Shown piece after piece: positions 2,989 to 51,180 of a DNA stretch of 64,000 nucleotides. Source of the stretch: Malacoplasma iowae. GTDB lineage: Bacteria; Bacillota_I; Bacilli_A; Mycoplasmatales; Mycoplasmoidaceae. Every line of letters starts with the position of its first letter. The first letter of the stretch is position 1. Made by a program: the position numbers and the translations under genes. The DNA lies in assembly GCF_900660615.1 (NCBI RefSeq), contig NZ_LR215023.1, positions 1,054,001 to 1,118,000 of the forward strand, written 5' to 3'. Under the pieces are notes generated by a model. That model worked only from the letters and a program-made list of their open reading frames with translations. It was not told where the DNA came from and ran no database searches.

Positions 2989-3009
2989 ATCCCATTTAAA
3001 AAATGGGAT
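2989..3009. repeat. 21-bp target duplication of IS copy 1 (partner 4171-4191)
   Basis: The same 21-bp inverted repeat (core CCCATTT..AAATGGG) stands on both sides of IS copy 1. It is a terminator hairpin. On the minus strand the left copy keeps the T-rich tail, whereas the right copy, directly behind the YfcC-type gene, has the IS attached in place of the tail. Confidence 0.9.
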
Positions 3010-4170
3010 GCTCGACTGACATGTGAAGTGCAACACTCGAAAAAGAGTGTGCACTTCATTTGTTTTGTTTGTAAGTGTTCACTAATAAAAAGATAATGAA
3101 TATTAGGAGTGCTTATGAAAACTTATAAACATTTAACAAAAGAAGAAAGATGCTTAATTTATTTTCTTTGAAATAAAGAAAAATATTCTATGAATAAGAT
3201 TGCAAAAATCTTAAATAAAAACAAATCAACAATATCAAGAGAATTAAAAAGAAACACATCTTCAACAGGAATTTATTATTCATCAAATGCTCACAAAAAA
3301 TACATTAGAAGAAAATCAAATTGTCATATGTTTTTTATGTTGAAGTACAAAAACTTCACAGATCTTTTTATTCAAAAATTTAATCCTAAATCTCATGGTG
3401 TAGAAGCTACAATTTTTTGAATAAAAGAAAACTATCCATTAGTTAAAGTTCCAAGTGCTAGGCAAGTATTTAGATGAATCAATAGCAAGATTTGAAAGAT
3501 ACAAAGAAGAGATTGTTTAAGAAGAAAATATGTTAAAGGAAAAAGAAGAAAAATAGGTATATTTTCTAAAATTGATGGAAAATACTGCATTCCTTATAGT
3601 CTAAGACCAGAAAAGATAAACAAAAGAAAAGAATTTGGACATTGAGAAGCTGATCTAATAGTTAGTAAAAGGCAAAGTGGTTATTACCACTTATTAACAT
3701 TAGTAGAAAGAAAAACAAGGTTGGCAATTATTAGAAAAATAAAAGGTAAAAACGCTAGATCAATGATGGCTAAAATGTATACCATTATTCGAGATGAAAA
3801 ACTCCCAATAAAAAGCATCACTGTTGATAATGGGTTAGAGTTTCAAATGATGGGAATAACTGCAAAACAATTCAACTTTAAAGTTTATTATTGCCAACCT
3901 TATTCTTCATTCCAAAGAGGGTCCAACGAGAACATAAATGGGATAGTTAGAAGATGATATAAAAAAGGAACTGACTTCAGTTTAGTAAGTGAAGATAAAA
4001 TAAAAACTCTTGAATGAAAAGTAAACAACATCCCAAGAAAAATGTTTGGTTATAAAACAGCTTACCAAATGTATCAAGAAAATATTTAAAACAAAAAACT
4101 CTCAACTTATATTTCAAAGTCGAGAGTTTAATGTAACATTGAAGTGTTGCACTTCACATGTCAGTTAGGG
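3010..4170 (+). mobile_element. IS30-family element, copy 1 (IS1630-like)
   Basis: The element is 1161 bp with terminal inverted repeats sharing CTGACATGTGAAGTGCAACACT; the outermost bases differ (GCTCGA left, CCCTAA right). It holds one complete transposase gene and an internal hairpin just after the gene stop. It is flanked by a 21-bp duplicated hairpin. Duplication of an inverted repeat of variable length is the behaviour described for IS1630 of M. fermentans. Confidence 0.93.
3115..4089 (+). CDS. IS30-family transposase, copy 1
   Basis: This 324-residue enzyme cuts and joins the element's ends. The N-terminus holds a helix-turn-helix (MNKIAKILNKNKSTISRELKR, residues about 26-46) for end recognition. 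The DDE core is visible: Asp in GHWEADLIV, Asp in ITVDNGLEF, and Glu in RGSNENINGIVRRWYKKGTDF. Several Trp are encoded by TGA, so translation needs the mollicute code. The start ATG follows AGGAGTGCTT. No frameshift or stop breaks it, so it is probably functional. Confidence 0.95.
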
Positions 4171-4205
4171 ATCCCATTTAAAAAATGGGATATTTTGAAT
4201 ACCTA

Positions 4206-7698: not shown

Positions 7699-7703
7699 AT
7701 GAT
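7663..7703. repeat. 41-bp target duplication of IS copy 2 (partner 8866-8906)
   Basis: The 41-bp sequence has arms ATCATTTATTT and AAATAAATGAT and contains the final codons and stop of dinB. The identical right copy supplies the base next to, and part of, the stop codon of the convergent membrane protein gene. Before insertion this was a shared bidirectional terminator between two converging genes. Confidence 0.92.
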
Positions 7704-8865
7704 GCTCGATTGACATGTGAAGTGCAACACTCAAAAAAGAGTGTGCACTTCATTTGTTTTGTTTGTAAGTGTTCACTAATAAAAAGATAATGAATATTAG
7801 GAGTGCTTATGAAAACTTATAAACATTTAACAAAAGAAGAAAGATGCTTAATTTATTTTCTTTGAAATAAAGAAAAATATTCTATGAATAAGATTGCAAA
7901 AATCTTAAATAAAAACAAATCAACAATATCAAGAGAATTAAAAAGAAACACATCTTCAACAGGGATTTATTATTCATCAACTGCTCACAAAAAATACATT
8001 AGAAGAAAATCAAATTGTCATATGTTTTTTATGTTGAAGTACAAAAACTTCACAGATCTTTTTATTCAAAAATTTAATCCTAAATCTCATGGTGTAGAAG
8101 CTACAATTTTTTGAATAAAAGAAAACTATCCGTTAGTTAAAGTTCCAAGTGCTAGGCAAGTATTTAGATGAATCAATAGCAAGATTTGAAAGATACAAAG
8201 AAGAGATTGTTTAAGAAGAAAATATGTTAAAGGAAAAAGAAGAAAAATAGGTATATTTTCTAAAATTGATGGAAAATACTGCATTCCTTATAGTCTAAGA
8301 CCAGAAAAGATAAACAATAGAAAAGAATTTGGACATTGAGAAGCTGATCTAATAGTTAGTAAAAGGCAAAGTGGTTATTACCACTTATTGACATTAGTGG
8401 AAAGAAAAACAAGGTTGGCAATTATTAGAAAAATAAAAGGGAAGAACGCTAGATCAATGATGGCTAAAATGTATACCATTATTCGAGATGAAAAACTCCC
8501 AATAAAAAGCATCACTGTTGATAATGGGTTAGAGTTTCAAATGATGGGAATAACTGCAAAACAATTCAACTTTAAAGTTTATTATTGCCAACCTTATTCT
8601 TCATTCCAAAGAGGGTCCAACGAGAACATAAATGGGATAGTTAGAAGATGATATAAAAAAGGAACTGACTTCAGTTTAGTAAGTGAAGATAAAATAAAAA
8701 CTCTTGAATGAAAAGTAAACAACATCCCAAGAAAAATGTTTGGTTATAAAACAGCTTACCAAATGTATCAAGAAAATATTTAAAACAAAAAAACTCTCAA
8801 CTTATATTTCAAAGTCGAGAGTTTAATGTAACATTGAAGTGTTGCACTTCACATGTCAGTTAGGG
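7704..8865 (+). mobile_element. IS30-family element, copy 2
   Basis: The element is 1162 bp. One extra A in the run after the transposase stop, and a T for C in the left end (CTCGATTGAC), distinguish it from copy 1. By eye it is identical to copy 3. It sits between the stop codons of dinB and the convergent gene at 8906-10090 without damaging either. Confidence 0.93.
7809..8783 (+). CDS. IS30-family transposase, copy 2
   Basis: This is a full-length 324-residue DDE transposase with the same helix-turn-helix and the same GHWEAD, TVDNGLEF and RGSNENING blocks as copy 1. There are a few substitutions relative to copy 1, such as Thr for Asn before AHKKY and Asn for Lys in KINNRKEF. No stop or frameshift is present under the UGA=Trp code. 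It starts at ATG after AGGAGTGCTT. Confidence 0.95.
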
Positions 8866-10152: not shown

Positions 10153-10241
10153 TGGCGGAGATGATGAGATTCGAACTCATGCGCCGCAGAACGACCTAAC
10201 ACCTTAGCAGGGTGCCCTCTTAACCACTTGAGTACATCTCC
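10153..10241 (-). tRNA. trnS: tRNA-Ser (GCT)
   Basis: This 89-nt long-variable-arm tRNA has anticodon GCT, which reads AGC/AGU. The acceptor stem GGAGATG pairs with CATCTCC, and the T-loop GTTCGAATC and an encoded CCA are present. It is the last gene of the cluster on the minus strand, separated from tRNA-Gly by a hairpin, so it may also have its own promoter. Confidence 0.95.
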
Positions 10242-10314
10242 AAAATAACAATTATTATTATAACAATATTTTAATCATTAAACCATACAAATAAAACAAA
10301 GTTAATAAAATAAA

Positions 10315-10336
10315 AAATATTCCCATCGGAATATTT
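10315..10336 (-). terminator. Hairpin between tRNA-Gly and tRNA-Ser
   Basis: A 9-bp stem AAATATTCC/GGAATATTT with loop CATC is followed on the minus strand by a T-rich run. It probably ends transcription of the five upstream tRNAs, at least partly. Confidence 0.7.
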
Positions 10337-10348
10337 ATCTTTTTTTAA

Positions 10349-10422
10349 TGGAGCAGGTGATGGGAATCGAACCCACGTTAATAGCTTGGAAGGCTATAGT
10401 TCTACCATTGAACTACACCTGC
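10349..10422 (-). tRNA. trnG: tRNA-Gly (TCC)
   Basis: This 74-nt gene has an acceptor stem beginning GCAGGTG, anticodon TCC, T-loop GTTCGATTC and an encoded CCA end. It is part of the minus-strand tRNA cluster. Confidence 0.95.
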
Positions 10423-10429
10423 AAAAAAA

Positions 10430-10515
10430 TGGTGCTGGAAAAGGGACTTGAACCCTTACGACATTGCTGTCACAGGATTTTAAGTCCTGTGCGTCTACCA
10501 TTCCGCCACTCCAGC
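10430..10515 (-). tRNA. trnL: tRNA-Leu (TAA)
   Basis: This 86-nt gene has a long variable arm. The acceptor GCTGGAG pairs through C72, the anticodon TAA reads UUA/UUG, and CCA is encoded. UUA is the favoured Leu codon here, so it is probably the major leucine tRNA. Confidence 0.95.
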
Positions 10516-10537
10516 AACCATAGTTTTTTTAAAAAAA

Positions 10538-10612
10538 TGGTGTCCCATAAAGGAATCGAACCTTTGACCCCTTCATTAAAAGTGAAATGCTCTACCGCTG
10601 AGCTAATGGGAC
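10538..10612 (-). tRNA. trnK: tRNA-Lys (TTT)
   Basis: This 75-nt gene has acceptor GTCCCAT, D-arm TAGCTCAGCGGTAGAGC, anticodon TTT, T-loop GTTCGATTC and an encoded CCA. Confidence 0.95.
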
Positions 10613-10655
10613 ATAGTAAAATGATTGATCATCATTTTATAAACTTTATTTTTAT

Positions 10656-10730
10656 TGGCTGGGCTGGTTGGGGTCGAACCAACGCATGATAGAGTCAAAG
10701 TCTATTGCCTTACCACTTGGCTACAGCCCA
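10656..10730 (-). tRNA. trnQ: tRNA-Gln (TTG)
   Basis: This 75-nt gene has acceptor TGGGCTG (U1-A72 as usual for bacterial tRNA-Gln), anticodon TTG, T-loop GTTCGACCC and an encoded CCA. Confidence 0.95.
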
Positions 10731-10734
10731 ATAA

Positions 10735-10819
10735 TGGTGGGCAGTGACGGATTCGAACCGCCGAAACACGAGGTAACTGATTTACAGTCAGCTGCGTTTG
10801 GCCACTTCGCTAACTACCC
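10735..10819 (-). tRNA. trnY: tRNA-Tyr (GTA)
   Basis: This 85-nt gene has a long variable arm, acceptor GGGTAG, anticodon GTA, T-loop GTTCGAATC and an encoded CCA. It is the first gene of the cluster. A TATTAT/TATAAT-rich stretch about 20-40 bp upstream (10840-10860) is the likely promoter. Confidence 0.95.
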
Positions 10820-24509: not shown

Positions 24510-24570
24510 AAAAACCTAAAAAAACAATTAAATTTTTAAAAAAATAAAATTATTGATTTTTTAGGTTTTT
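24510..24570. repeat. 61-bp target duplication of IS copy 3 (partner 25733-25793)
   Basis: The 61-bp inverted repeat (arms AAAAACCTAAAAAA and TTTTTTAGGTTTTT) stands on each side of IS copy 3. It lies between the convergent or tandem ends of trmB and the start of the HAD gene and would act as the trmB terminator. It is the longest of the four duplications. Confidence 0.92.
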
Positions 24571-25732
24571 GCTCGATTGACATGTGAAGTGCAACACTCA
24601 AAAAAGAGTGTGCACTTCATTTGTTTTGTTTGTAAGTGTTCACTAATAAAAAGATAATGAATATTAGGAGTGCTTATGAAAACTTATAAACATTTAACAA
24701 AAGAAGAAAGATGCTTAATTTATTTTCTTTGAAATAAAGAAAAATATTCTATGAATAAGATTGCAAAAATCTTAAATAAAAACAAATCAACAATATCAAG
24801 AGAATTAAAAAGAAACACATCTTCAACAGGGATTTATTATTCATCAACTGCTCACAAAAAATACATTAGAAGAAAATCAAATTGTCATATGTTTTTTATG
24901 TTGAAGTACAAAAACTTCACAGATCTTTTTATTCAAAAATTTAATCCTAAATCTCATGGTGTAGAAGCTACAATTTTTTGAATAAAAGAAAACTATCCGT
25001 TAGTTAAAGTTCCAAGTGCTAGGCAAGTATTTAGATGAATCAATAGCAAGATTTGAAAGATACAAAGAAGAGATTGTTTAAGAAGAAAATATGTTAAAGG
25101 AAAAAGAAGAAAAATAGGTATATTTTCTAAAATTGATGGAAAATACTGCATTCCTTATAGTCTAAGACCAGAAAAGATAAACAATAGAAAAGAATTTGGA
25201 CATTGAGAAGCTGATCTAATAGTTAGTAAAAGGCAAAGTGGTTATTACCACTTATTGACATTAGTGGAAAGAAAAACAAGGTTGGCAATTATTAGAAAAA
25301 TAAAAGGGAAGAACGCTAGATCAATGATGGCTAAAATGTATACCATTATTCGAGATGAAAAACTCCCAATAAAAAGCATCACTGTTGATAATGGGTTAGA
25401 GTTTCAAATGATGGGAATAACTGCAAAACAATTCAACTTTAAAGTTTATTATTGCCAACCTTATTCTTCATTCCAAAGAGGGTCCAACGAGAACATAAAT
25501 GGGATAGTTAGAAGATGATATAAAAAAGGAACTGACTTCAGTTTAGTAAGTGAAGATAAAATAAAAACTCTTGAATGAAAAGTAAACAACATCCCAAGAA
25601 AAATGTTTGGTTATAAAACAGCTTACCAAATGTATCAAGAAAATATTTAAAACAAAAAAACTCTCAACTTATATTTCAAAGTCGAGAGTTTAATGTAACA
25701 TTGAAGTGTTGCACTTCACATGTCAGTTAGGG
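24571..25732 (+). mobile_element. IS30-family element, copy 3
   Basis: The element is 1162 bp and appears identical to copy 2, including the CTCGATTGAC left end and the extra A after the transposase gene. This indicates very recent transposition from one to the other or from a common source. It is inserted in the intergenic hairpin upstream of the HAD gene. Confidence 0.93.
24676..25650 (+). CDS. IS30-family transposase, copy 3
   Basis: This is a full-length 324-residue transposase, the same as that of copy 2 by eye. The helix-turn-helix and the DDE residues (GHWEAD, TVDNG, SNENING) are intact. It starts at ATG behind AGGAGTGCTT and ends at TAA before the internal hairpin of the element. Confidence 0.95.
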
Positions 25733-29750: not shown

Positions 29751-29797
29751 AAAAAACTAGATAAATAAGTTTATTAAACTTTATTGTCTAGTTTTTT
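29751..29797. repeat. 47-bp target duplication of IS copy 4 (partner 30959-31005)
   Basis: The 47-bp inverted repeat has arms AAAAAACTAGA and the near-complement ending CTAGTTTTTT. It is the terminator of the SemiSWEET-like gene, which ends two bases earlier. Identical copies flank the element. Confidence 0.92.
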
Positions 29798-30958
29798 CCC
29801 TAACTGACATGTGAAGTGCAACACTTCAATGTTACATTAAACTCTCGACTTTGAAATATAAGTTGAGAGTTTTTTGTTTTAAATATTTTCTTGATACATT
29901 TGGTAAGCTGTTTTATAACCAAACATTTTTCTTGGGATGTTGTTTACTTTTCATTCAAGAGTTTTTATTTTATCTTCACTTACTAAACTGAAGTCAGTTC
30001 CTTTTTTATATCATCTTCTAACTATCCCATTTATGTTCTCGTTGGACCCTCTTTGGAATGAAGAATAAGGTTGGCAATAATAAACTTTAAAGTTGAATTG
30101 TTTTGCAGTTATTCCCATCATTTGAAACTCTAACCCATTATCAACAGTGATGCTTTTTATTGGGAGTTTTTCATCTCGAATAATGGTATACATTTTAGCC
30201 ATCATTGATCTAGCGTTTTTCCCTTTTATTTTTCTAATAATTGCCAACCTTGTTTTTCTTTCTACTAATGTTAATAAGTGGTAATAACCACTTTGCCTTT
30301 TACTAACTATTAGATCAGCTTCTCAATGTCCAAATTCTTTTCTATTGTTTATCTTTTCTGGTCTTAGACTATAAGGAATGCAGTATTTTCCATAAATTTT
30401 AGAAAATATACCTATTTTTCTTCTTTTTTCTTTAACATATTTTCTTCTTAAACAATCTCTTCTTTGTATCTTTCAAATCTTGCTATTGATTCATCTAAAT
30501 ACTTGCCTAGCACTTGGAACTTTAACTAATGGATAGTTTTCTTTTATTCAAAAAATTGTAGCTTCTACACCATGAGATTTAGGATTAAATTTTTGAATAA
30601 AAAGATCTGTGAAGTTTTTGTACTTCAACATAAAAAACATATGACAATTTGATTTTCTTCTAATGTATTTTTTGTGAGCAGATGATGAATAATAAATTCC
30701 TGCTGAAGATGTGTTTCTCTTCAACTCTCTTGATATTGTTGATTTGTTTTTATTTAAGATTTTTGCAATCTTATTCATAGAATATTTTTCTTTATTTCAA
30801 AGAAAATAAATTAAGCATCTTTCTTCTTTTGTTAAATGTTTATAAGTTTTCATAAGCACTCCTAATATTCATTATCTTTTTATTAGTGAACACTTACAAA
30901 CAAAACAAATGAAGTGCACACTCTTTTTCGAGTGTTGCACTTCACATGTCAGTCGAGC
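29798..30958 (-). mobile_element. IS30-family element, copy 4 (inverted)
   Basis: The element is 1161 bp, oriented opposite to the other three. It has the CTCGACTGAC end like copy 1 and several private substitutions. It lies between the SemiSWEET-like gene and the RpiR-type regulator gene, whose stops converge on it. Confidence 0.93.
29879..30853 (-). CDS. IS30-family transposase, copy 4
   Basis: This is a full-length 324-residue transposase. It differs from the other copies by a handful of residues: Ala for Thr in TSSAGIYY, KEKRRK for KGKRRK, and IYGK for IDGK. The DDE residues and helix-turn-helix are unchanged. The reading frame is intact, so it is probably active. It is transcribed leftward toward the SemiSWEET-like gene's terminator. 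Confidence 0.95.
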
Positions 30959-31040
30959 AAAAAACTAGATAAATAAGTTTATTAAACTTTATTGTCTAGT
31001 TTTTTATAATTATTAAAAATAACTTTATTATTTTGAAAAT

Positions 31041-37683: not shown

Positions 37684-39393
37684 TTATTGTCCTAATGAAG
37701 TCGCTAATTGTTCAACAGTTTTTGAAGCATTTTTTCAAATAGCTTTTTCATTTTCTGTATTGCTTAAGCTTATTCCAAATGTAACTTCAGATGTTTTTCC
37801 ATTAGTGTTATATTTATTATTGCCATTAGCAGTTAATGTAAAAGCTTTTTTGAAAGCAAAACCTTTATTTAAAGTTAAAGTAAGAGTAATAGTATCTTTG
37901 AAACCTTCATCTTGTGCATCAGTTACTTGATTTGACTTGTAAGAAATTGAAACACCATTATAAAGTGGAATTTGTTGAGTCTTTGAAGATTGATCAATTT
38001 TTTCAATAAACTTGTTAAATATTTTTTGGTTTTGTAAGTTTTTTCTAAGAATTTCTGTAGCAGACACAGTCTCATTTCAACCCATTTCAAATGATTTATT
38101 TCCAAAAAAAGTTTTTGTGATGTTCATGAATTTTCCACCATCTACAGTAGTATCAATGATGTAAGCATTTGGAACATTCACTTGTAATGGATGTTGAGTT
38201 TGATTATCTGATTTTTGTGAAACAATTTTATATGTGTTAAAATTCAAATTTAAATCTGTATTTTGTCCATTATTCAAAGTTGTAGAAACTAGTATATTGT
38301 ATTCTCCATTGTAATCTGTTTTGGAAACATCTCTTTGTTTCATTTCAATTTGAATACCAAGTAATTTTTCTTTAGTTAAACCATCGATTCCAAGATCAGA
38401 AATTATTGTATCTTCTTTTAATAATGTTGAATCAATGCCATCACCATCAACATGTTCATTATCTAAACTTTTGCTACTATCTAATCAACCTAAAGCTTTA
38501 AGAATTCCTTCATCTGTAACAGTTTTTCACAAACCAATAGAATCATTATCAGATGTTGCCATTTCTGCTAATGTTATAGTTTTTTTACTATCAGAATTTG
38601 TTACAAAAGTTTGTTCAATTAAAGGTGTACTTGTAACAGTATAAGTGAACACCACTTCTTCTGATGTAGATTGATTATTACCAAATGAAGCCTTTAAATT
38701 AATAGTTGGATTAAAGTTAATTACATTTGATGGAATAGATAGAGTGTAATTTGTAGAAGTTCTAACATCTCTTTTTGTTCTAACTATGTTTGTTTTAGTA
38801 GTATCTTCTGCTTTAATTGCAACTAATAAATTTCCATTCTCATCAACCTTAATATCAGCATCAGCTAAACTGGCTTTTTTAGTACCAAGACTTGATATAG
38901 CATTTTTTGCAATTTTTTCTATATTAGTGTTTAAAAAATCTCTTAATTCTTTATTTGATTTAAATTCTAATTTTTCATCTGAATTCGCTGTATCTTTAGA
39001 ACCTTTTCAATCAACTTTTGTTGAATTGCTTGTTTTGTTTCATTCATCAAAAGACATTGAACCTCAATTGTCATTATCTCAGCCAACTAAACTAGTATCT
39101 AAACTTATATTATTTTTTTCACTTTCTGGAATACATACTCAGTTAGCAATAACTGATTCTTTCTTAGAATTCAAAACAAATTTAACATTAGTGTTAACAT
39201 CATCTGCTTTACTTGATGTAGTAATGAATTCATCTAAACTTCCAATTCCACTAATTGATTTTTTTAATTGTGGAGTAACAGTTGCACTTTGTGATGTGCT
39301 TTTCTTTTTACATGATGTTAACATCACTGGGGTAGCTCCAACAATACCCAAACAACCAATTATACCTATGGTTTTTAATAATTTTATTTTCAT
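37684..39393 (-). CDS. Large lipoprotein behind a poly-T promoter spacer
   Basis: The product has 569 residues. The signal sequence ends in lipobox VMLTSC (Cys near 28). The mature protein is Thr/Ser/Asn-rich with predicted beta-type repeats of Lys/Asp-flanked strands (for example TNYTLSIPSNVINFNPTINL). No enzyme motif is visible. Trp residues are encoded by both TGG and TGA. Surface exposure is inferred from the lipobox. The promoter spacer is an 18-nt T run, so expression may switch on and off. Confidence 0.82.
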
Positions 39394-40454: not shown

Positions 40455-40492
40455 TATAAAAAAGCACAAATAATATAAGTTATTTGTGCTTT
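40455..40492 (-). terminator. Terminator of transglutaminase-like lipoprotein 1
   Basis: A perfect 12-bp stem (40461-40472 with 40481-40492) has an 8-nt loop. The minus strand then reads TTTATATT. Confidence 0.85.
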
Positions 40493-40502
40493 CAAAATTA
40501 TA

Positions 40503-43481
40503 TTAGAATTGTTTAACTATATTTATTGGTTTATTGTTTTGAGGTCTAATTTTTTGTTTTAAATCATTTGATAATTCAATTCATTTATCAAAGTTTTTTG
40601 TATCCACATCATTTTTTGTAATCATATACATAAATGGTGAATATAAATGAAACACTTGATTGTTTGTTTTATATTTAACCTCAACATCCATAAAGTAAAT
40701 ACCTTTATTATCTTCATCAACTTTACCAATAACATATTTTTCTTTTCTTAAAGGATTATCTCATGTTTGTAATGTATTAAGTTGTTTAGTTTTAAAATCA
40801 TATCTTTTTAAATAAACTTTAGTATCATAATTTGCTCTGATTTGAGATCAATTATAGTTTAAAGATAAAGTATATCTTTGATCATATCAATTATAAACAA
40901 ATTTATCATAGTAGTTTGTTTGTCCTACTGGTGTTGAAGGATGAGTGTTATCTGTATATTCAATATTAGGTTGTTCTGGCTGATTAACCACATTGTCATC
41001 ATCAGTTATAGCAAAGTAAAAATGATCTGTGTTGTATTCTATTGAATTATCATTGTTATGCATTTTTATATAATATTTACCATTCGGATTATCACTATAT
41101 TTTTCAAAGTATGATTTTTTAATTATAGGTTTATACAAATCATTAGCTATTAATTCATATTTATTGCTATCTTTTGGTAAAAAATATATGTCATATAGTA
41201 ATGCAGTATTATATTGATCTTTTGATAAATTATGAAAACTATCAAACCCAGGATTTATATTATCAAAATAATAACCATATTTTTCAAATGAATCTTTGTC
41301 AATTAGATAAATATCTGATGAAACACTACTTGCAATATTGCCTTTTTTAGATAATAAAGATTTTTCAAATTCATCACTATAATTTTTAACTTTTACTAAA
41401 TCATTATAAGCTGATCCAGAAGTTTTAAAATTTTTAAAATATTTATTATATTCATTTTTCTTTTCTAAAGTAGTTTGTTGATTTTCAGTTCCTATTTGGT
41501 GAGTGTTACCAATTAATTTATAATAAATGCTAGCTGTTTTAACAGCACTTGAATCTAAATATTGATCATTTTTAACTTGTACTTCAGTTGGCAAATCATA
41601 TTTTTTAATAATTGATGCAATTGTTTTCCCACCATTATCTTTAAAACTATATTCAATACATAATTTATCATTATCAAAGAAAAATGTTTGAAAGAAAGCC
41701 TTTTCTGTTTTGTATTCAACACCATTTTCATCTTTATATAAAACTTCATTAGGAATATCTATGCTTTTTGTGTTTTCCCAATTTGTATCCTTAAAGTTGT
41801 GGAAATAAATTTTTGTTTTGCTGTTAACTGGTTTTGGATCCATATAATTTGGTCTTTCAAAAACTGAAAAAGCCATTCAATCATTATATAAACCAAGATA
41901 TGGTGAAGAATATCTTTTGTTACCAAAAGAATATAAATCATTCAATATTTCTTGTGGAATACTAAATTCTTCTCTATTTGAGTTATTCATTGATGTTTTA
42001 TAAAATTTAATTTTTCTTTGATTATCTATAATCATGCTATATCATTCATTTTTATATCAAACTGGTCTTGATTGTTTATTTTGTAAATTACCAAAACCAT
42101 TTCTAATATTAGTGTAAGTACCTAAATTTTCTAAGTATTTTCTGTCAGACGAAACTTTAACTTGTTTGTTTTTAAAAGGTGAATATCAAGGGCTACTTAA
42201 AAATCTAAAAAAACTATTTTGTTTTAGACTGTAATCAATATTTCCGCCCTCAATATCTGAAACTGGTTCTAAAAAGTTACCCCAAGCACCACCACCATTA
42301 CTTATTACATAAGCACTTGGTCAAGTTGTTTCTGCTTTATAATCACCACTTGTAGCATCCATAATATATCACTTCTTTTGATTTGAATTGTCTGCATCAA
42401 TTCATACTCAAGTAACAGCATGTCCAGGATAACTAACTTGTGGATGAGAAAACATATCACTAGCAGTATTCATAAATGCTGGAACACCAATTAAGTTTAA
42501 TAAGAAAGCAGCAGTAAATGCATAATGAACACAAACTCCTAAGTGTTTCATATAAGCTCCATATGGGTCAACTGCTGAATCACCATATGCAATATATGAC
42601 ATAACAAAGTTAAAAACTGATAAAGCCTTATCCAAATCACTCATATCAGGACGATAATAATTAGTTAGAAATAATCTAACCATTTGAAAAAAAGCATCTC
42701 TTTGTTCTGATTGAATTGTAATTAAATCTGCTGTGTTTCCTATTTTTGATTCTTTAACATAAAATTTATGTTCATCAAAAAATTTAGTGTAATTATTTCT
42801 TCATTGATTCAATACATCATAGTCAAATTTTTGACTTGGATCATCACTATCAGTATGGAAATAAGGCACAATGTTTTCAAAGGAAATTCAAGGATATAAT
42901 GCTCAATTTTCAGCCAATCATTTAATATAAATGTTTGATAGTCAATCAGTTTCAATTTTTCTTTGTCCAAATGTATGAACTCTACCTAATTGCCCATTAT
43001 TAACTATGTATGTGAAATAATCATAGACTTCTTTTTCACTTACTTTTTCTTTCATTGGTAAAGGAACATTTCCTCAACGAGTTAAAATGTTTTTATTTTG
43101 TGTATTTGGATTAGTAATTCAATACTCTTGATTTTGTTCTTGATCTTTTGGTGTGTTAGGAGCAAGCATGTAATCAACATCTTTTATATATTCTTTTTCA
43201 TCTGGTACTACTGGAGGTTCAACTGGTTTTTCTTCTGGAGGAATTTCTGGAGAAGTTTCTGGTTGATCTACTGGTGGGTTCACAGGTGGTGTTGTAGTAT
43301 TATCTTCACCCGGTGCTGAACCAGGTTTATCAGTTGGTGGCACTATAGTTGGTGTATCTGGAGTATTAGTTACTAAACTACTTCCATTTCAACAAGATGT
43401 TAAAACTGTAGGCAATATTAAAAGTCCAGCTAAAGCTGTGGAACCAATCATCATTATTTTAAGTTTTTTTCATTTTTTCAT
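40503..43481 (-). CDS. Transglutaminase-like lipoprotein 1
   Basis: This 992-residue surface lipoprotein starts MKKWKK (TGA Trp) and has lipobox TVLTSC (Cys about 30). A Pro-rich linker (about residues 40-95, many Pro-Pro and Glu) precedes an N-terminal domain. The transglutaminase-like core has the Cys-His-Asp triad: GVCVHYAF (Cys317), PGHAVTWVWID (His354) and WYIMDAT (Asp375). Residues about 400-990 form beta-rich repeats without catalytic motifs, ending in a conserved block NYYDKFVYNWYD and beyond. The fold could be a cysteine protease, a transglutaminase or a peptide cyclase. It is the downstream member of three tandem paralogues, each with its own promoter. Confidence 0.88.
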
Positions 43482-43514
43482 ATTACACCTATCTCCTTAA
43501 TCTTTCTTTACCCG

Positions 43515-43520
43515 ATTATA
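43515..43520 (-). promoter_or_regulatory. Extended -10 promoter of lipoprotein 1
   Basis: TTTTGTTATAATCG (TG-T-TATAAT, an extended -10) precedes the gene by about 34 bases, followed by AAGGAGATAGGTG as the ribosome site. The same TTTGTTATAAT occurs before the two paralogues. Confidence 0.7.
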
Positions 43521-43615
43521 ACAAAATAAAAATATAGTAAAAGAATGTAAAACAATTTCTTATTTTTATTATGTCAAACCTTTTTTATTTATTTATTTAA
43601 AATTATTTTACTAAC

Positions 43616-43653
43616 AAAAAAAAAAAAAAAACAATCCTTTTTTGCAGGATTGT
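43616..43653 (-). terminator. Terminator of transglutaminase-like lipoprotein 2
   Basis: The stem ACAATCC/GGATTGT (43631-43637 with 43647-43653) is followed on the minus strand by 16 T residues. Confidence 0.9.
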
Positions 43654-43679
43654 TGTCTGTTATTTTACATGACGTTTTA

Positions 43680-46679
43680 TTATTTTTGTGGTTTGGGATT
43701 TTCTTTTAAAATTTCTTCTTTCAATTGTTTAGATAAATTAACTCATTCACTAAAGTTTTTTGAATCAACATCATTTTTTGTAATCATGTACATGAATGAA
43801 GAATATAAATGGAATTTTTTTTGATTGTTTTTATATTTAAGTTCTATATCTAAATAGTAAATCCCTTTATTATTTTCATTAATTTTACCAATTACATATT
43901 TTTCTTTTTTTAATGGATCATTTCAAGTTTTTAAAGTTTTGATTTTTTTAGTTTTAAATTCAAATGATTTTAAGTTTACAGTTATATCGTAATTTGTATT
44001 TATTCTAGATCATTGATAGTTAAATAATAGTTGATACTCTTTGTCATATCAATCATAAATAAATCTATCATAATAATTTGTTTGCCCTTGTGGTGTATAA
44101 GGTGTTAATACCTCTGTGTAATCAATTCTTGGTTGTTCTGGAATATAAGCAACATTTTTACTATCGCTTATTGCAAAGTAGAATGGTTCAGTTTCATATA
44201 AAAGCGAATTATCTTGATTATGCATTCTTATATAATATTTACCATTAGGGTTATTATTATACTCTTTAAAATATGATTTTTTAATTATTGGTTTATATAA
44301 ATCTTTTTGTAAAAGTTTGTATTCATTAGAAGATTCTGGAGCAAAATATATATCATATTTTAAAGTTGTATTATATTGATCATTTGATAAGTTGTAGAAA
44401 CTATCAAATCCAGGATTTATATCATCAAAATAATAACCATATTGGTCAAATGTATCTTGTTCACTAAGATATATATCTGATGATATTCCACTTGCAACAT
44501 TTTCTTTTGCAGTTAATAAAGACTTTTCAAAATTATCACTATATTCTTTAAGTTTTATTACATCCTCATAAGGCTTGTTAGTTGATTTAAAATCATTATA
44601 ATATTTGTTATAATTTTCTTTCATTTCTAAAGTTATTTGTTGATTTTCAACACCTATTTTATGTGTATTTCCAACAAGTTTGTAATAAATTTTTGCATTT
44701 TCAACAACTTTAGAATCTAAATACGTATCATTTTTAATTTGTACTTTTTCTGGTAAATCATATCTTTTAATTACTGAAGCAAAAGTTTTACCACCATTAT
44801 TTTTAAAACTATATTCAATACATAATTGATCATTATCAAAGAAGAAAGTTTGGAAAGTAGCATTTTCTGTTTTATATTCTTTACCATTTTCATCAGTGTA
44901 TAAAACTTCATTTTCTATTTCCATAGTTTGAGTATTTTTTCAATCTGAATCTTTAAAGTTGTGGAAATAAATTTTTCTTGCTTTTTTAAATGGAGTTCCC
45001 ATTGTATAGTCTGGAGTTTCAAAAACAGAAAATGCCATTCAATCATTATAAGTACCAGCAAATGGTTTTGAATATTTTACATTATTATTAGCTTTTATAT
45101 CTCTAATTATTTCATCTGGAATATTGATTTCTTCTTTATTTGCATCATTCATTGATGTCTTATAAATTTTAACATCTCTATCATTTTCAATGATAAGACT
45201 ATATCAATTGTTGTTGTATCAAATAGGTCTAGATTGGCTATTTTTGTTGCTACCAAAACTTGATCTTATATTTTGATATGTACCTTTATTATTTAAATAT
45301 GAATAGTCAGGAGAAACTTTTACATTTTTATTTTTAAATGGAGAATATCAAGGCCCATTTAAAAACTGGAAAAAACTATTTTGAGATAAATTATAATCAA
45401 TGTTTCCACCTTCAATATCAGAAACTGGATCTAGGAAGAAACTTCAATTACTACCACTAGTTGAAACATAAGCACTAGGTCATGTAGTTTCTCCTTCATA
45501 ATCACTAAATGTTGCATCCATTATATATCATTTCTTTTCGCCTGAATTATCTGCATCAATTCAAACCCAATTTACAGCATGACCTGGACGAGAAACATTT
45601 GGGTGACTATATAAATTATGAGCAGTATTCATAAATGATGGAACACCAATTAAATTCAATAAGAAAGCTGCAGTAAATGCATAATGAACACAAACTCCCA
45701 TGTGTTTCATATAAGCACCATAAGGGTCATTGTTAGAATCTCCATATGCAATATATGACATTACAAAGTTAAATACAGTTAATGCTTTATCTAAGTCGCT
45801 CATTCCAGGACGATAATAGTTTGTTAAAAACAATCTTATCATTTCAAAATATGCATCTCTTTGTTGAGACTGAATTGTAATGAAATCTGCTGAATTACTA
45901 AATTTATTACGATTCATATAAAATTTATTTTTTTCAAAATATTCAGGATATTTTCCTCTTCAAGTAACTAAGTCATCATAATCAAAATCTTGAGTTGGAT
46001 CTAATTTATTTGTTTCAAAATAAGCTGGATGATTTTCAAAAGACATTCATGGATATAAAGTTCAGTTTTTTATCAATCATTCTATAAATACATTAATAAT
46101 TCAATCAGTTTCAATTTTTCTTTTTCCAAAAGTGTATGGTCTACCAATTTGGTTATTAACTGCAACATATGTGAAATAATTATAAGCATCATCTTTGCTT
46201 ACATCATTTTTCATTGGCAATGGAACATTTCCCCATTCTTGAAGAATGTAATCATTTTGCGTATTAGGATTTGTTATTCAATACTCTTTATTATCCTCTT
46301 GTCCAGATGGTGTATTTGATGCTAAAAAATAATCAACACCTTTAATATAACCTTCTTTATCTGGTTCAACTGGTGGAATTACTGGTGTTTCATCTGATGG
46401 GTTTTCTGGAGAAGTTTCTGGTGGACTTACAGGTGGTGTTGTTGGTTCATTTGTGGAATCATCAACTGGTGGAACAACTGGATTTCCAGGATTAGATGTT
46501 GAACCATCACCAGGAATAGAACCCGAATCATTTGATGGTGGAACAACAGTTGGATAATTAGGTGTATTTGTTACAATATTACTTCCATTTCAACAAGATG
46601 TTAAAACTGTTGGAACAATCAGAAGTGTAGCCATTGCTGCTGTACCAACCATCACTCTAAATTTTTTCATTTTTTTCAT
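43680..46679 (-). CDS. Transglutaminase-like lipoprotein 2
   Basis: This 999-residue paralogue of lipoprotein 1 has a signal peptide with lipobox TVLTSC and the longest Pro/Ser-rich linker of the three. The catalytic triad is Cys330 (GVCVHYAF), His367 (PGHAVNWVWID) and Asp388 (WYIMDAT). The His-to-Asp distance of 21 residues is the same in all three. The C-terminal 600 residues align closely with the neighbours, including YNDWMAFSVFE and QTFFFDNDQLCIEYSF. It has its own extended -10 promoter and terminator, so the trio is three single-gene units, not an operon. Confidence 0.88.
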
Positions 46680-46715
46680 ATTCAAACTCCATAACCATAA
46701 AGAATACTTTACTCG

Positions 46716-46721
46716 ATTATA
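46716..46721 (-). promoter_or_regulatory. Extended -10 promoter of lipoprotein 2
   Basis: TTTTGTTATAATCGAG matches the lipoprotein 1 promoter at nearly every base around the TATAAT. The ribosome site TGGAG lies about 10 bases before the ATG. Confidence 0.7.
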
Positions 46722-46871
46722 ACAAAATAAAAATTTTAAAAAAGGTTTATAAAATATATAAAAAAAATTAACATTGATTTATTTAAATTTATTAACATTA
46801 AATTTTTATGATTGTCTTGTTATTTTAAAAAGAATATATATTAAATTTATAGTGTTATATTTTTGCTTTAA

Positions 46872-46902
46872 ATAAAAAAGTATAAGCAATTATAGCTTAT
46901 AC
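46872..46902 (-). terminator. Terminator of transglutaminase-like lipoprotein 3
   Basis: The stem GTATAAGC/GCTTATAC (46880-46887 with 46895-46902) is followed on the minus strand by a T-rich run. Confidence 0.85.
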
Positions 46903-46910
46903 CTACTTTT

Positions 46911-49811
46911 TTATATTTTAGAATTATTAGCTTTAATTAATGTTTTTAATTCATTTGATAAACTAACTCACTTAGTAAAGTTATTTGAATCAACATCGTT
47001 TTTTGTCATCATATACATAAATGGTGAATATAAATTAAATACTTTTGAATCTGATTTGTATTTAATTTCTACATCATAAAAGTAAATTCCTTTATTATCT
47101 TCAGTAATTTTTCCAATATCATATTTTTCATTTCGCAAAGGATCATATCAAGTTTTTAATGTTTTAATTTGTTTAGTTTTAAAATCATATCTTTTCAAGC
47201 TGACATTAACATCATAAGTTGCACTAATTTTAGATCACTGATAACTAAAAGACAATGTATATTTTTGGTCATATCAATTATAAATAAACTTATCATAATA
47301 ATTTGTCTGACCTTGCGGCAAAGATGGAGACAAATTATCTGTATATAAAATTTTTGGTTGTTCTGGTTGAATGGCAACATTCTTTGAATCAGTTATAGCA
47401 AAATAGAATGGGTCAGTATTATAAGTTAAAGTATCATTATAATTATGTATCTTTATATAATACTTTCCATTTGGGCTGCTATTATATTTTTCAAAATCTG
47501 TTTTTTTAATTACAGGTTTGTATAAATCCTTGGCAATTAAGTCATATTGGTCATCTGATTTTGATGAAAAATAAATGTCATATTTTAAAGCTGTATTATA
47601 TTGATCATTATTTAAATTATAAAAACTATCAAATCCAGGATTTATATCATCAAAATAATAACCATATTGTTCAAAAGCACTTTCTTCAATAAGGTATATG
47701 TCTGATGAAACTCCACTTGCTATATTTTCTTTTGCTGTCAATAATGATTTTTCAAATTTATCACTATAATCTTTAAGAGTTAGTAAATCATTATAAGGTT
47801 TATCAGATGCTTTAAATTTATCAAAATATTCATTATATTTTTCTTTATTTTCCAAAGTTACTTGTTGATTTTCTGTACCAACTTGGTGAGTGTTGCCCAT
47901 TAGTCTATAATATATTTTTGCATTTTCCACTACTTTTCAATCTAGGTATTTATCATTTTTAATTTGAACTTCTTTTGGTAATTCATATCTTTTAATTGTT
48001 GTTCCAATTGTATTTCCAGCATTATCTTTAAAACTAAATTCAATGCATAGTTTGTCACTATCAAAAAAGAATGTTTGAAAAAATGCTTTATTTGTTTCGT
48101 ATTTATTTCCTTTTTCATCCACAAATAAAACTTCATCTGGAATATCAAATGTTTGTGTATTTTCTCAATTTGTATCATTGAAATTATGAAAATATATTTT
48201 TCTTTTGTTTTCGAGTGGTTTTTGATTCATATAGTCAGGTTTTTCAAAAACAGAAAATGCTAATCAATCATTGTAAGTTCCAAAAAACGGATTAGAATAT
48301 TTTGTTCTTCCAAGGGTTCCTAATTCACTTATTATATTATTTGGAACATAAAATTCTTCTTTAACAGTATTTCCCATTGATGTTTTATAAAATTTAATTT
48401 GTGTATCGTTTTCAATTACCATACTATATCAATTTTTGTTAAATCAAACTGGTTTAGATTGTTTATAAGTGCTTTTTCCAAAACTATTTTTAATATTATA
48501 AAATGTACCCATTTGATCCAAATAATCATAATTCTCAGAAATTTTTACTTGTTGATTTTTATATGGTGAATATCAAGGCCCATTCAAAAATTCAAAAAAA
48601 CTATTTTGTTTTAAATTGTAATCTATGTTACCACCAGGTATATCAGAAACAGGATTTAAAAAATAGTTTCATGTACCATTGCTGCTTAAAATATAAGCAC
48701 TTGGTCAAGTAGTTTCACCCTTATAATCACTAGCTGTAGCGTCCATAATATATCACTTTTTTTGATTTGAATTATCACCATCAATTCAAACTCATGTTAC
48801 AGCATGTCCTGGTGGTTCTATACCCGGATGAGAAAGCATGTCTCCAGCTATATTCATAAATGCTGGAACACCAATTAAATTTAATAGAAAAGCAGATGTA
48901 AATGAATAATGTACACAAACACCCATATGTTTCATATAAACACCATATGGATCTTTAGAAGAATCTCCATATGCAATATATGTCATTACAAAGTCAAAAA
49001 CCGCTAAAGCTTTATCTAAATCACTCATTCCCGGACGATAATAATTTATTAAAAATAATCTTATCATTTCAAAGAATTTTTCTCTTTGTTGTGATTCAAT
49101 AGTAATTAAATCTGCAGTGTTACTAAATTTATTATTTTTTATATAAAATTTATTTTGATCAAAAAACTTATCATAATTGCCTCTTCATTTGTCTAAAATT
49201 CAATAATCATATTTTTGAGAACTATCCATATTGTCAGTGTGAAAATATGCTGGGTCATTTTCAAATGACATTCAAGGATATAAAGCTCAATTTTCAACTA
49301 ATCATTGAATGTAAATATTGGCAATTCAATCAGTTTCAATTTTTCTTTCCCCAAAACTATAAGATCTACCTAATTGTCCATTGTTGGCAACATAAGTAAA
49401 ATAATCATAAACCTCTTCTGCAGTTACATTTTCTTTCATTGGTAAAGGAACATTTCCTCAACGAGTTAAAATGTTTTTATTTTGAGTGTTAGGATTAGTT
49501 ATTCAATATTCTTTATTTTCTTCTTGGCCTTTTGGTGTATTTGGATCTAAAAAATAATCTACATATTTTATATAACATTCTTTATCTGGTGTAATAGGTG
49601 GGGTTACTGGTTTTTCATCTGGTGGAGTTGTATTATTATCTTCTCCAGGGTTTGTTCCAGGTTTTTCTGTTGGTGGAATTGGATTATCAGGTGTATTAGT
49701 TACAATTTCATTACCACTTCAACAAGAAGTTAAAACTGTTGGAACAATTAAAAGAACTGCTAAAGTTGTTGAGCCAAATAGCATTACTTTAAATTTTTTT
49801 CATTTTTTCAT
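46911..49811 (-). CDS. Transglutaminase-like lipoprotein 3
   Basis: This 966-residue third paralogue has the shortest linker. Lipobox TVLTSC is followed by a Pro/Thr-rich segment. The triad is Cys299 (GVCVHYSF), His336 (PGHAVTWVWID) and Asp357 (WYIMDAT). All conserved C-terminal blocks of the paralogues are present and the frame is intact under UGA=Trp. The divergent 5' neighbour is the TDT-type transporter. Its role is unknown but is presumably surface proteolysis or protein crosslinking, shared with the paralogues. Confidence 0.88.
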
Positions 49812-49852
49812 AACAACCCCCTTCATTTACATATACAAAGATTGTTTACATC

Positions 49853-49858
49853 ATTATA
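49853..49858 (-). promoter_or_regulatory. Extended -10 promoter of lipoprotein 3
   Basis: TTTGTTATAATG repeats the extended -10 seen before lipoproteins 1 and 2, with GAAGGGGG as a strong ribosome site. Confidence 0.68.
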
Positions 49859-50028
49859 ACAAATTAAAAACATGTGAAAAGGTAGTTAAAATTTATAAGA
49901 AATTTTTAAAAATTAAACATTTTATTAACTTAAAATAGTAAATTTCGAAGAAAAGATAATAAGGTTTTAAATCTATATTTGCTTTAATTGTTATAATCAA
50001 TAATAGTTTCTCTTTTTTTGAGGTAATT

Positions 50029-51180
50029 ATGAAAAATATGTTTAGACATAGAATACAACATATGCCAGTGGCTGTTACAGGTTTATCATTAGGGATTGCT
50101 GGACTAGCTTCTGTTTTAGATACTATATTTCAACAATTTTATAGTTCAAATAATTTATGATGATGTTCAATCCCTCTTATAGCAATTTCATCATTTCTAC
50201 TTTTATTAATGACAATAAGAAATTTTAGACACCCTAAAATATTAAAATTCGACTCAAGAGATACACTTTCTTCATCTTTGCTTCCAACATATAGTATGAC
50301 ATTAATGTGTATAGCTGAATTTATAGCAGGATGACAAAAAGGTTGTAGTGGTACCCCACCTTGTCAGGTTATTGGGGCAATAGTTATGTGTTTGTCTGTA
50401 TTAATACAATTAATTTTTATTGTTTTATTTTTTAAAAATGTATTAATGAAATTTAAATGACACATTCATCCAGCTTATGGTTCATGACTTGTTCCAACTG
50501 TTGGAATTATTACTTCTTGTACTTTTGCTGGTAGATTTAATGAGAATATATTACCTATATGATTTTTTCAAGCGATATGATTTTTTGGTTTTATAACATT
50601 TGTTCCTTTGTTTATAGTTATTACTTATCAATTGTTATTTAAAACTAAAGCAGCGCAAGAAAAATATCCAAGTATTGCAGTGTATTTTGCTCCTCCAAAT
50701 TTAGTACTTGCAGGTTTTATGCAAACATTTGCAATTCCAAGCCAAAACGCTAATATTGTTCCAGAAATTCAAGCTTTTGGCGGAAGCAACAGCACTTTTA
50801 TATTTGTAATGTCTGTATTGTTAATAATGCTTGCTTTTACATACACGATAGTTCTATGATTTTTTGCAACAAGAATTTTTATAACACATAAATTTGCCTT
50901 TATTTTTGCATCATTTACATTCCCTTTGGCTATTGGTTCAGCTTCTATGTTATATGCATCAAACTATTTAAAAAAGCTTTATACAAATTCAAATCAATCA
51001 TATTTACTTATTGTTTCAGATACTTTTAGATATATAGGATATATATTTTCAACAGTTGCTTTTATTTGTATAGTTTATATTGCAACAAGATTTTTTATAA
51101 AATTATTAAAAGATGTTTTTTCAAATAAAAACGATGATAAACATCATGTAGTTTATACAAAGGATCAAAAAAATGTTTAG
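50029..51180 (+). CDS. TDT/SLAC1-type transporter
   Basis: This 383-residue protein has about ten hydrophobic helices. The opening MPVAVTGLSLGIAGLA and internal HPAYGSWLVPTVGI and FAPPNLVLAGF match the tellurite-resistance/dicarboxylate transporter (TDT) family, related to plant SLAC1 anion channels. The ion or acid moved is unknown. The ribosome site TTGAGGT lies before the ATG. It overlaps the next gene by eight bases. Confidence 0.83.

What the first reader, a model, noticed from the sequence alone, without database searches (positions are those of the whole stretch)
40503..49811. Three tandem transglutaminase-like surface lipoproteins
Three paralogues of 992, 999 and 966 residues occupy 9.3 kb. 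Each has an intact Cys-His-Asp triad with equal spacing, a lipobox, a Pro-rich stalk of differing length and a conserved 600-residue C-terminal half without recognised domains. Each has its own extended -10 promoter and terminator. A large family of anchored cysteine hydrolases or crosslinkers on a wall-less cell is not something I recognise, and it could act on host proteins or on neighbouring lipoproteins.
Basis: partly seen in the sequence, partly recalled or inferred. Interest (0 to 1): 0.72.

Follow-up and report, generated by a model that had tools for sequence, protein, structure and literature searches.

The report
Surface transglutaminase-fold lipoproteins of a mycoplasma
A bird-associated mycoplasma (almost certainly Mycoplasma iowae) carries four related surface-anchored proteins, three side by side, whose intact catalytic site suggests enzymes that cut or modify proteins outside the cell; the fold is known, but this mycoplasma family appears unstudied.

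Summary
Three genes (code 4; 992, 999 and 966 aa) each encode a lipobox, a Pro-rich stalk, a transglutaminase-like core with Cys-His-Asp at identical spacing (37 and 21 residues), and about 610 further residues with no Pfam domain above cut-off. A fourth paralogue lies elsewhere in the 1.28 Mb genome, so this is a family of four, not a large one. All four share a 26-bp extended -10 promoter block found nowhere else in the genome within two mismatches.

The family is not unique to this genome. Full-length relatives occur patchily in two families of the order (about 30 of 320 genomes), and the triad is unbroken in all 29 long sequences compared, down to 17-25% identity. The nearest solved structure by profile (E 3e-5) and by predicted fold (Z 7.3) is Streptococcus pyogenes TglA. 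Outside the order only the core matches.

Best reading: surface cysteine amidohydrolases, more likely proteases than cross-linkers, acting on extracellular proteins. The substrate is unknown, and nothing here separates protease, deamidase and transamidase. Structure predictions were poor (pLDDT 47-50); an Ig-like C-terminal end is only tentative. New variant of a known kind, of moderate interest.

The parts
40503..43481 (-). Paralogue 1 (992 aa): lipobox, Pro-rich stalk, TG core, ~617-aa C-terminal part
43680..46679 (-). Paralogue 2 (999 aa)
46911..49811 (-). Paralogue 3 (966 aa); an alternative ATG lies 15 bases upstream, but MKKWKK is shared by paralogues 1, 3 and 4
42531..42533 (-). Catalytic Cys317 of paralogue 1 (His354 42420-42422, Asp375 42357-42359)
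   Evidence: coordinates computed from residue numbers
45690..45692 (-). Catalytic Cys330 of paralogue 2 (His367 45579-45581, Asp388 45516-45518)
   Evidence: coordinates computed from residue numbers
48915..48917 (-). Catalytic Cys299 of paralogue 3 (His336 48804-48806, Asp357 48741-48743)
   Evidence: coordinates computed from residue numbers
43191..43391 (-). Pro-rich, acidic stalk of paralogue 1 (67 aa, 18 Pro)
46350..46592 (-). Pro-rich, acidic stalk of paralogue 2 (81 aa, 20 Pro)
49575..49721 (-). Pro-rich, acidic stalk of paralogue 3 (49 aa, 12 Pro)
43507..43532 (-). Promoter block TTTTTAWTTTGTTATAATNNNGTAAA upstream of paralogue 1
46708..46733 (-). Promoter block upstream of paralogue 2
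49845..49870 (-). Promoter block upstream of paralogue 3
40460..40493 (-). Terminator-like hairpin and T run after paralogue 1
43630..43654 (-). Terminator-like hairpin and T run after paralogue 2
46878..46904 (-). Terminator-like hairpin and T run after paralogue 3

Best explanation
These are four lipid-anchored ectoenzymes of Mycoplasma (Malacoplasma) iowae under one shared type of promoter. The lipobox Cys is lipidated and holds the protein in the membrane, and a flexible acidic Pro-rich stalk carries the catalytic part away from it. A transglutaminase-fold core uses the Cys thiol, activated by His and Asp, to attack an amide bond of an extracellular protein and form a thioester. The C-terminal ~600 residues, which probably end in one or two Ig-like sandwiches, position or recognise the substrate. 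My commitment is that the thioester is mostly resolved by water, so it is a protease or deamidase-type hydrolase of host or medium proteins rather than a cross-linker. Shown: anatomy, invariant triad, shared promoter, membership of the TG-like superfamily. Inferred: lipidation, surface exposure, activity, direction of the reaction, substrate.
For: Pfam Transglut_core is above cut-off in all three and matches all 16 diverse members (best E 6.6e-9). The Cys, His and Asp are invariant in 29 long homologues, and 8 of the 15 columns invariant across 16 members lie in the core. The profile hits S. pyogenes TglA 9CRN at E 3.3e-5 with Cys, His and Asp in register, and 9CRN is also the top fold match, Z 7.3, rmsd 3.7, 105 residues, one Z unit above the rest. 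The proteins hold only three or four Cys in about 1000 residues, one in the lipobox and one catalytic. Amino-acid identity is 65-71% between paralogues while four-fold sites are only 48-59% identical, which points to long purifying selection on all four. The promoter block is exact at the four genes only. Genome neighbourhoods of relatives show no conserved partner gene, which suggests a stand-alone enzyme.
Against: No activity has been tested for this family, and sequence cannot tell hydrolysis from transamidation. Structure models are poor (pLDDT 50 and 47), and Z 7.3 lies in the range that the tool calls common. Pfam scores are only 1-4 bits above cut-off in the window's proteins.
Confidence: 0.5

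Rival explanations
1. Transamidase or cross-linker: the thioester is resolved by a lysine or polyamine, so the proteins join host proteins to each other or to the mycoplasma surface, giving adhesion or a coat on a wall-less cell.
For: The fold and triad are those of the transglutaminase-like superfamily; the anchor would allow covalent attachment to host proteins.
Against: Most prokaryotic PF01841 proteins with known activity are hydrolases (own knowledge). No signature of glutamine-lysine specificity could be tested.
Confidence: 0.25
2. Adhesin or antigenic decoy in which catalysis is secondary: paralogues diversify the surface and the C-terminal part does the binding.
For: Lipoprotein expansion, stalk length variation, low conservation of the C-terminal part across species.
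Against: The triad is never lost in 29 sequences down to 17-25% identity, and the four paralogues evolve under purifying selection without sign of recent conversion or phase-variable repeats.
Confidence: 0.15
3. The transglutaminase domain is over-read and the conserved block is an unrelated fold.
For: Borderline Pfam scores in the window's own proteins; low-confidence models.
Against: All 16 family members hit the same Pfam model independently, the profile finds TglA and other TG-like structures, the predicted helix-strand order around the Cys, His and Asp fits, and other Bacilli match only over this core.
Confidence: 0.04

Closest known systems
Streptococcus pyogenes TglA (PDB 9CRN)
   Same: Best solved match by profile (E 3.3e-5) and by fold (Z 7.3 over 105 residues); Cys, His and Asp in the same register.
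   Different: 379-residue chain; no counterpart of the lipobox, Pro-rich stalk or ~600-residue C-terminal part was aligned.
Pfam PF01841 Transglut_core (transglutaminase-like superfamily)
   Same: Core above the curated cut-off, triad conserved.
   Different: Most of the protein is not covered by any Pfam or NCBIfam model above cut-off.
Mycoplasma CysP (IgG-cleaving cysteine protease of M. gallisepticum and M. synoviae; PMC8593674)
   Same: Surface cysteine enzyme of bird mycoplasmas, so a model for what such an enzyme could do.
   Different: CysP is papain-like (own knowledge); no Pfam papain model matched here.
MIB-MIP immunoglobulin cleavage system (PMC8593674)
   Same: Paralogous surface proteins of mycoplasmas with proteolytic function.
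   Different: MIP is a serine protease and works as a pair with MIB; here there is a Cys triad and no conserved partner gene.

Membership tests
Transglutaminase-like superfamily (PF01841) | Profile score above the curated cut-off | tested here: met
   24.3, 26.9 and 25.9 bits against 23; 16 of 16 members match
Transglutaminase-like superfamily (PF01841) | Cys-His-Asp triad | tested here: met
   Invariant in 29 long homologues; spacing 37/21 in all four own paralogues
Transglutaminase-like superfamily (PF01841) | Papain/transglutaminase alpha-beta fold | tested here: inconclusive
   Top match 9CRN, Z 7.3, but model pLDDT 50; profile to 9CRN E 3.3e-5
True transglutaminase (protein-glutamine gamma-glutamyltransferase activity) | Gln-Lys transamidation | not testable with these tools
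   Needs biochemistry
Bacterial lipoprotein | N-terminal signal with basic start, hydrophobic stretch and lipobox Cys | tested here: met
   MKKWKK..., LTSC with Cys at residue 29 or 30 in all four; lipidation itself not tested
CysP-type papain protease (C1) | Match to papain-family profile | tested here: not met
   Transglut_core is the only model above cut-off, and no papain-family model is listed at E up to 1
MIB-MIP immunoglobulin system | Serine protease (MIP) with adjacent MIB | tested here: not met
   No such family match; no conserved neighbours

The most novel reading that the evidence does not exclude
A previously undescribed, order-wide class of mollicute surface enzyme in which a TG-fold core and a mycoplasma-specific C-terminal recognition part remodel host proteins covalently (site-specific deamidation or transamidation), giving a wall-less cell a covalent coat or disarming host defence proteins.
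Probability: 0.12. Interest if true: 0.75.

Novelty: new variant of a known kind. Interest (0 to 1): 0.42.

Why it matters
Mycoplasmas have few known surface enzymes that act on host proteins. A family with an unbroken catalytic triad, spread patchily over two families of the order and present four times in one avian species under its own shared promoter, is a concrete, testable candidate for a host-facing activity. If it proves to be a protease of antibodies or matrix proteins it would join CysP and MIB-MIP; if a transamidase it would be a new way to build a surface coat.

Tried and rejected
A beta-propeller in the C-terminal part was suggested by strand patterns. Profile-profile comparison of the candidate blades gave no repeat signal beyond segment overlap, so it was dropped. 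The DM10-domain and Tim44-like hits are far below cut-off and were treated as chance. The Ig-like matches at the C-terminus (Z 6-7, all tied) are only suggestive because the models are poor. The first genome-contig scan failed, probably because its patterns contained Trp, which these genomes write mostly as TGA; a Trp-free query found five loci. No relatives turned up in viral contigs. Genome neighbours show no partner gene. No paper on the function of this family or on S. pyogenes TglA was found in the library.

Full report
Observation. Pfam Transglut_core is just above its cut-off in each. Triad residues are C317/H354/D375, C330/H367/D388 and C299/H336/D357, with identical spacing of 37 and 21. 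The lipobox is LTSC, the stalks are 67, 81 and 49 residues with 12-20 prolines, and 609-617 residues follow the Asp. Terminator-like hairpins follow all three genes.

Extent in the genome. The window lies in a single-contig genome of 1,278,574 bases. It holds a fourth full-length paralogue at about 607589-610519, at 65-71% amino-acid identity to the others, and no further Transglut_core match. So this is a family of four, three in tandem. The genome encodes a catalase.

Promoter. The upstream regions of the four genes share TTTTTAWTTTGTTATAATNNNGTAAA, an extended -10, about 25-34 bases before the start codon. In the whole genome this block occurs four times without mismatch, exactly at these four genes. 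No site with one or two mismatches exists, and five with three mismatches were found, against one in the reversed control. Four-fold sites of the coding regions are only 48-59% identical between paralogues, so the block has been kept while near-neutral positions drifted. Common inheritance explains its presence; selection or co-regulation is the likely reason it persists.

Relatives. A protein search in 95 genomes of the family gave only weak core hits outside this genome. A profile of six members, run over 320 genomes of the order, found relatives over the core in about 30 genomes of two families (my count from the table). Many of the weakest rows match only the signal peptide and were not counted; only two candidates per genome were scored, so copy numbers elsewhere are lower bounds. 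In 29 long sequences, four of them from this genome, Cys, His and Asp are invariant. Named relatives are an uncultured Mycoplasma, Candidatus Ureaplasma intestinipullorum, another Ureaplasma and Mycoplasmataceae bins. A tree groups the four M. iowae copies on a long stem (support 100/100), apart from the homologue of a same-genus genome, which groups with another genus. It also places one sequence of the window's own family (f1) inside a group of another family (f7) at 71% identity, as horizontal transfer would. In 395 genomes of the class, matches outside the order cover only the core. The full architecture therefore looks confined to this order, within the genomes sampled.

Structure. Even so, the best of 997 compared chains was S. 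pyogenes TglA (9CRN), Z 7.3 over 105 residues at the core. A 16-member profile independently finds 9CRN as its best sequence among all solved structures, E 3.3e-5, with Cys, His and Asp aligned. Two C-terminal stretches resemble Ig-like sandwiches at Z 6-7; this is a common fold and a weak model, so it is only a suggestion. Conservation is concentrated in the core: 8 of 15 invariant columns among 16 members.

Interpretation. Shown: anatomy, superfamily membership, invariant triad, purifying selection, shared promoter, absence of a conserved partner gene. Inferred from established knowledge of the fold: thioester chemistry. Inferred without test: surface location, hydrolysis rather than transamidation, host substrates. 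I put protease- or deamidase-type hydrolysis ahead of cross-linking because most prokaryotic proteins of this superfamily with known activity are hydrolases (own knowledge).

Known or new. Transglutaminase-like domains are already on record in mycoplasma domain surveys (PMC5293770) and in M. bovis annotation (PMC10504702), although I did not verify that those are this family. No NCBIfam model covers the proteins, and no functional study was found. I file it as a new variant of a known kind.

Noticed in passing
window 3009-4171, 7703-8792, 24557-25659 (+) and 29797-30972 (-): Four nearly identical (98-99%) copies of an insertion sequence encoding a 326-aa transposase with HTH_38 and rve domains (IS30-like), all in the first half of the window.
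   Followed up: partly
window 43507-43532, 46708-46733, 49845-49870: The 26-bp promoter block occurs in the genome only at the four family genes, suggesting a dedicated or co-inherited promoter.
   Followed up: yes
L016:4042-7470 (G084) and L022:1501-5037 (G212): 71% identical full-length homologues in two different families of the order, a likely horizontal transfer.
   Followed up: partly
L051:8179-12201 and L050:2710-6729: In two Ureaplasma-like genomes the gene is followed by a related large (over 1300 aa) protein with an N-terminal hydrophobic stretch and unknown function; not seen in the other neighbourhoods read.
   Followed up: no
window 50029-51180 (+): SLAC1/TDT-type anion channel gene divergent from paralogue 3.
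   Followed up: no
window 37684-39393 (-): 569-aa lipoprotein without any Pfam match directly downstream of the array.
   Followed up: no
window 10153-10819 (-): Cluster of six tRNA genes (Ser, Gly, Leu, Lys, Gln, Tyr).
   Followed up: no
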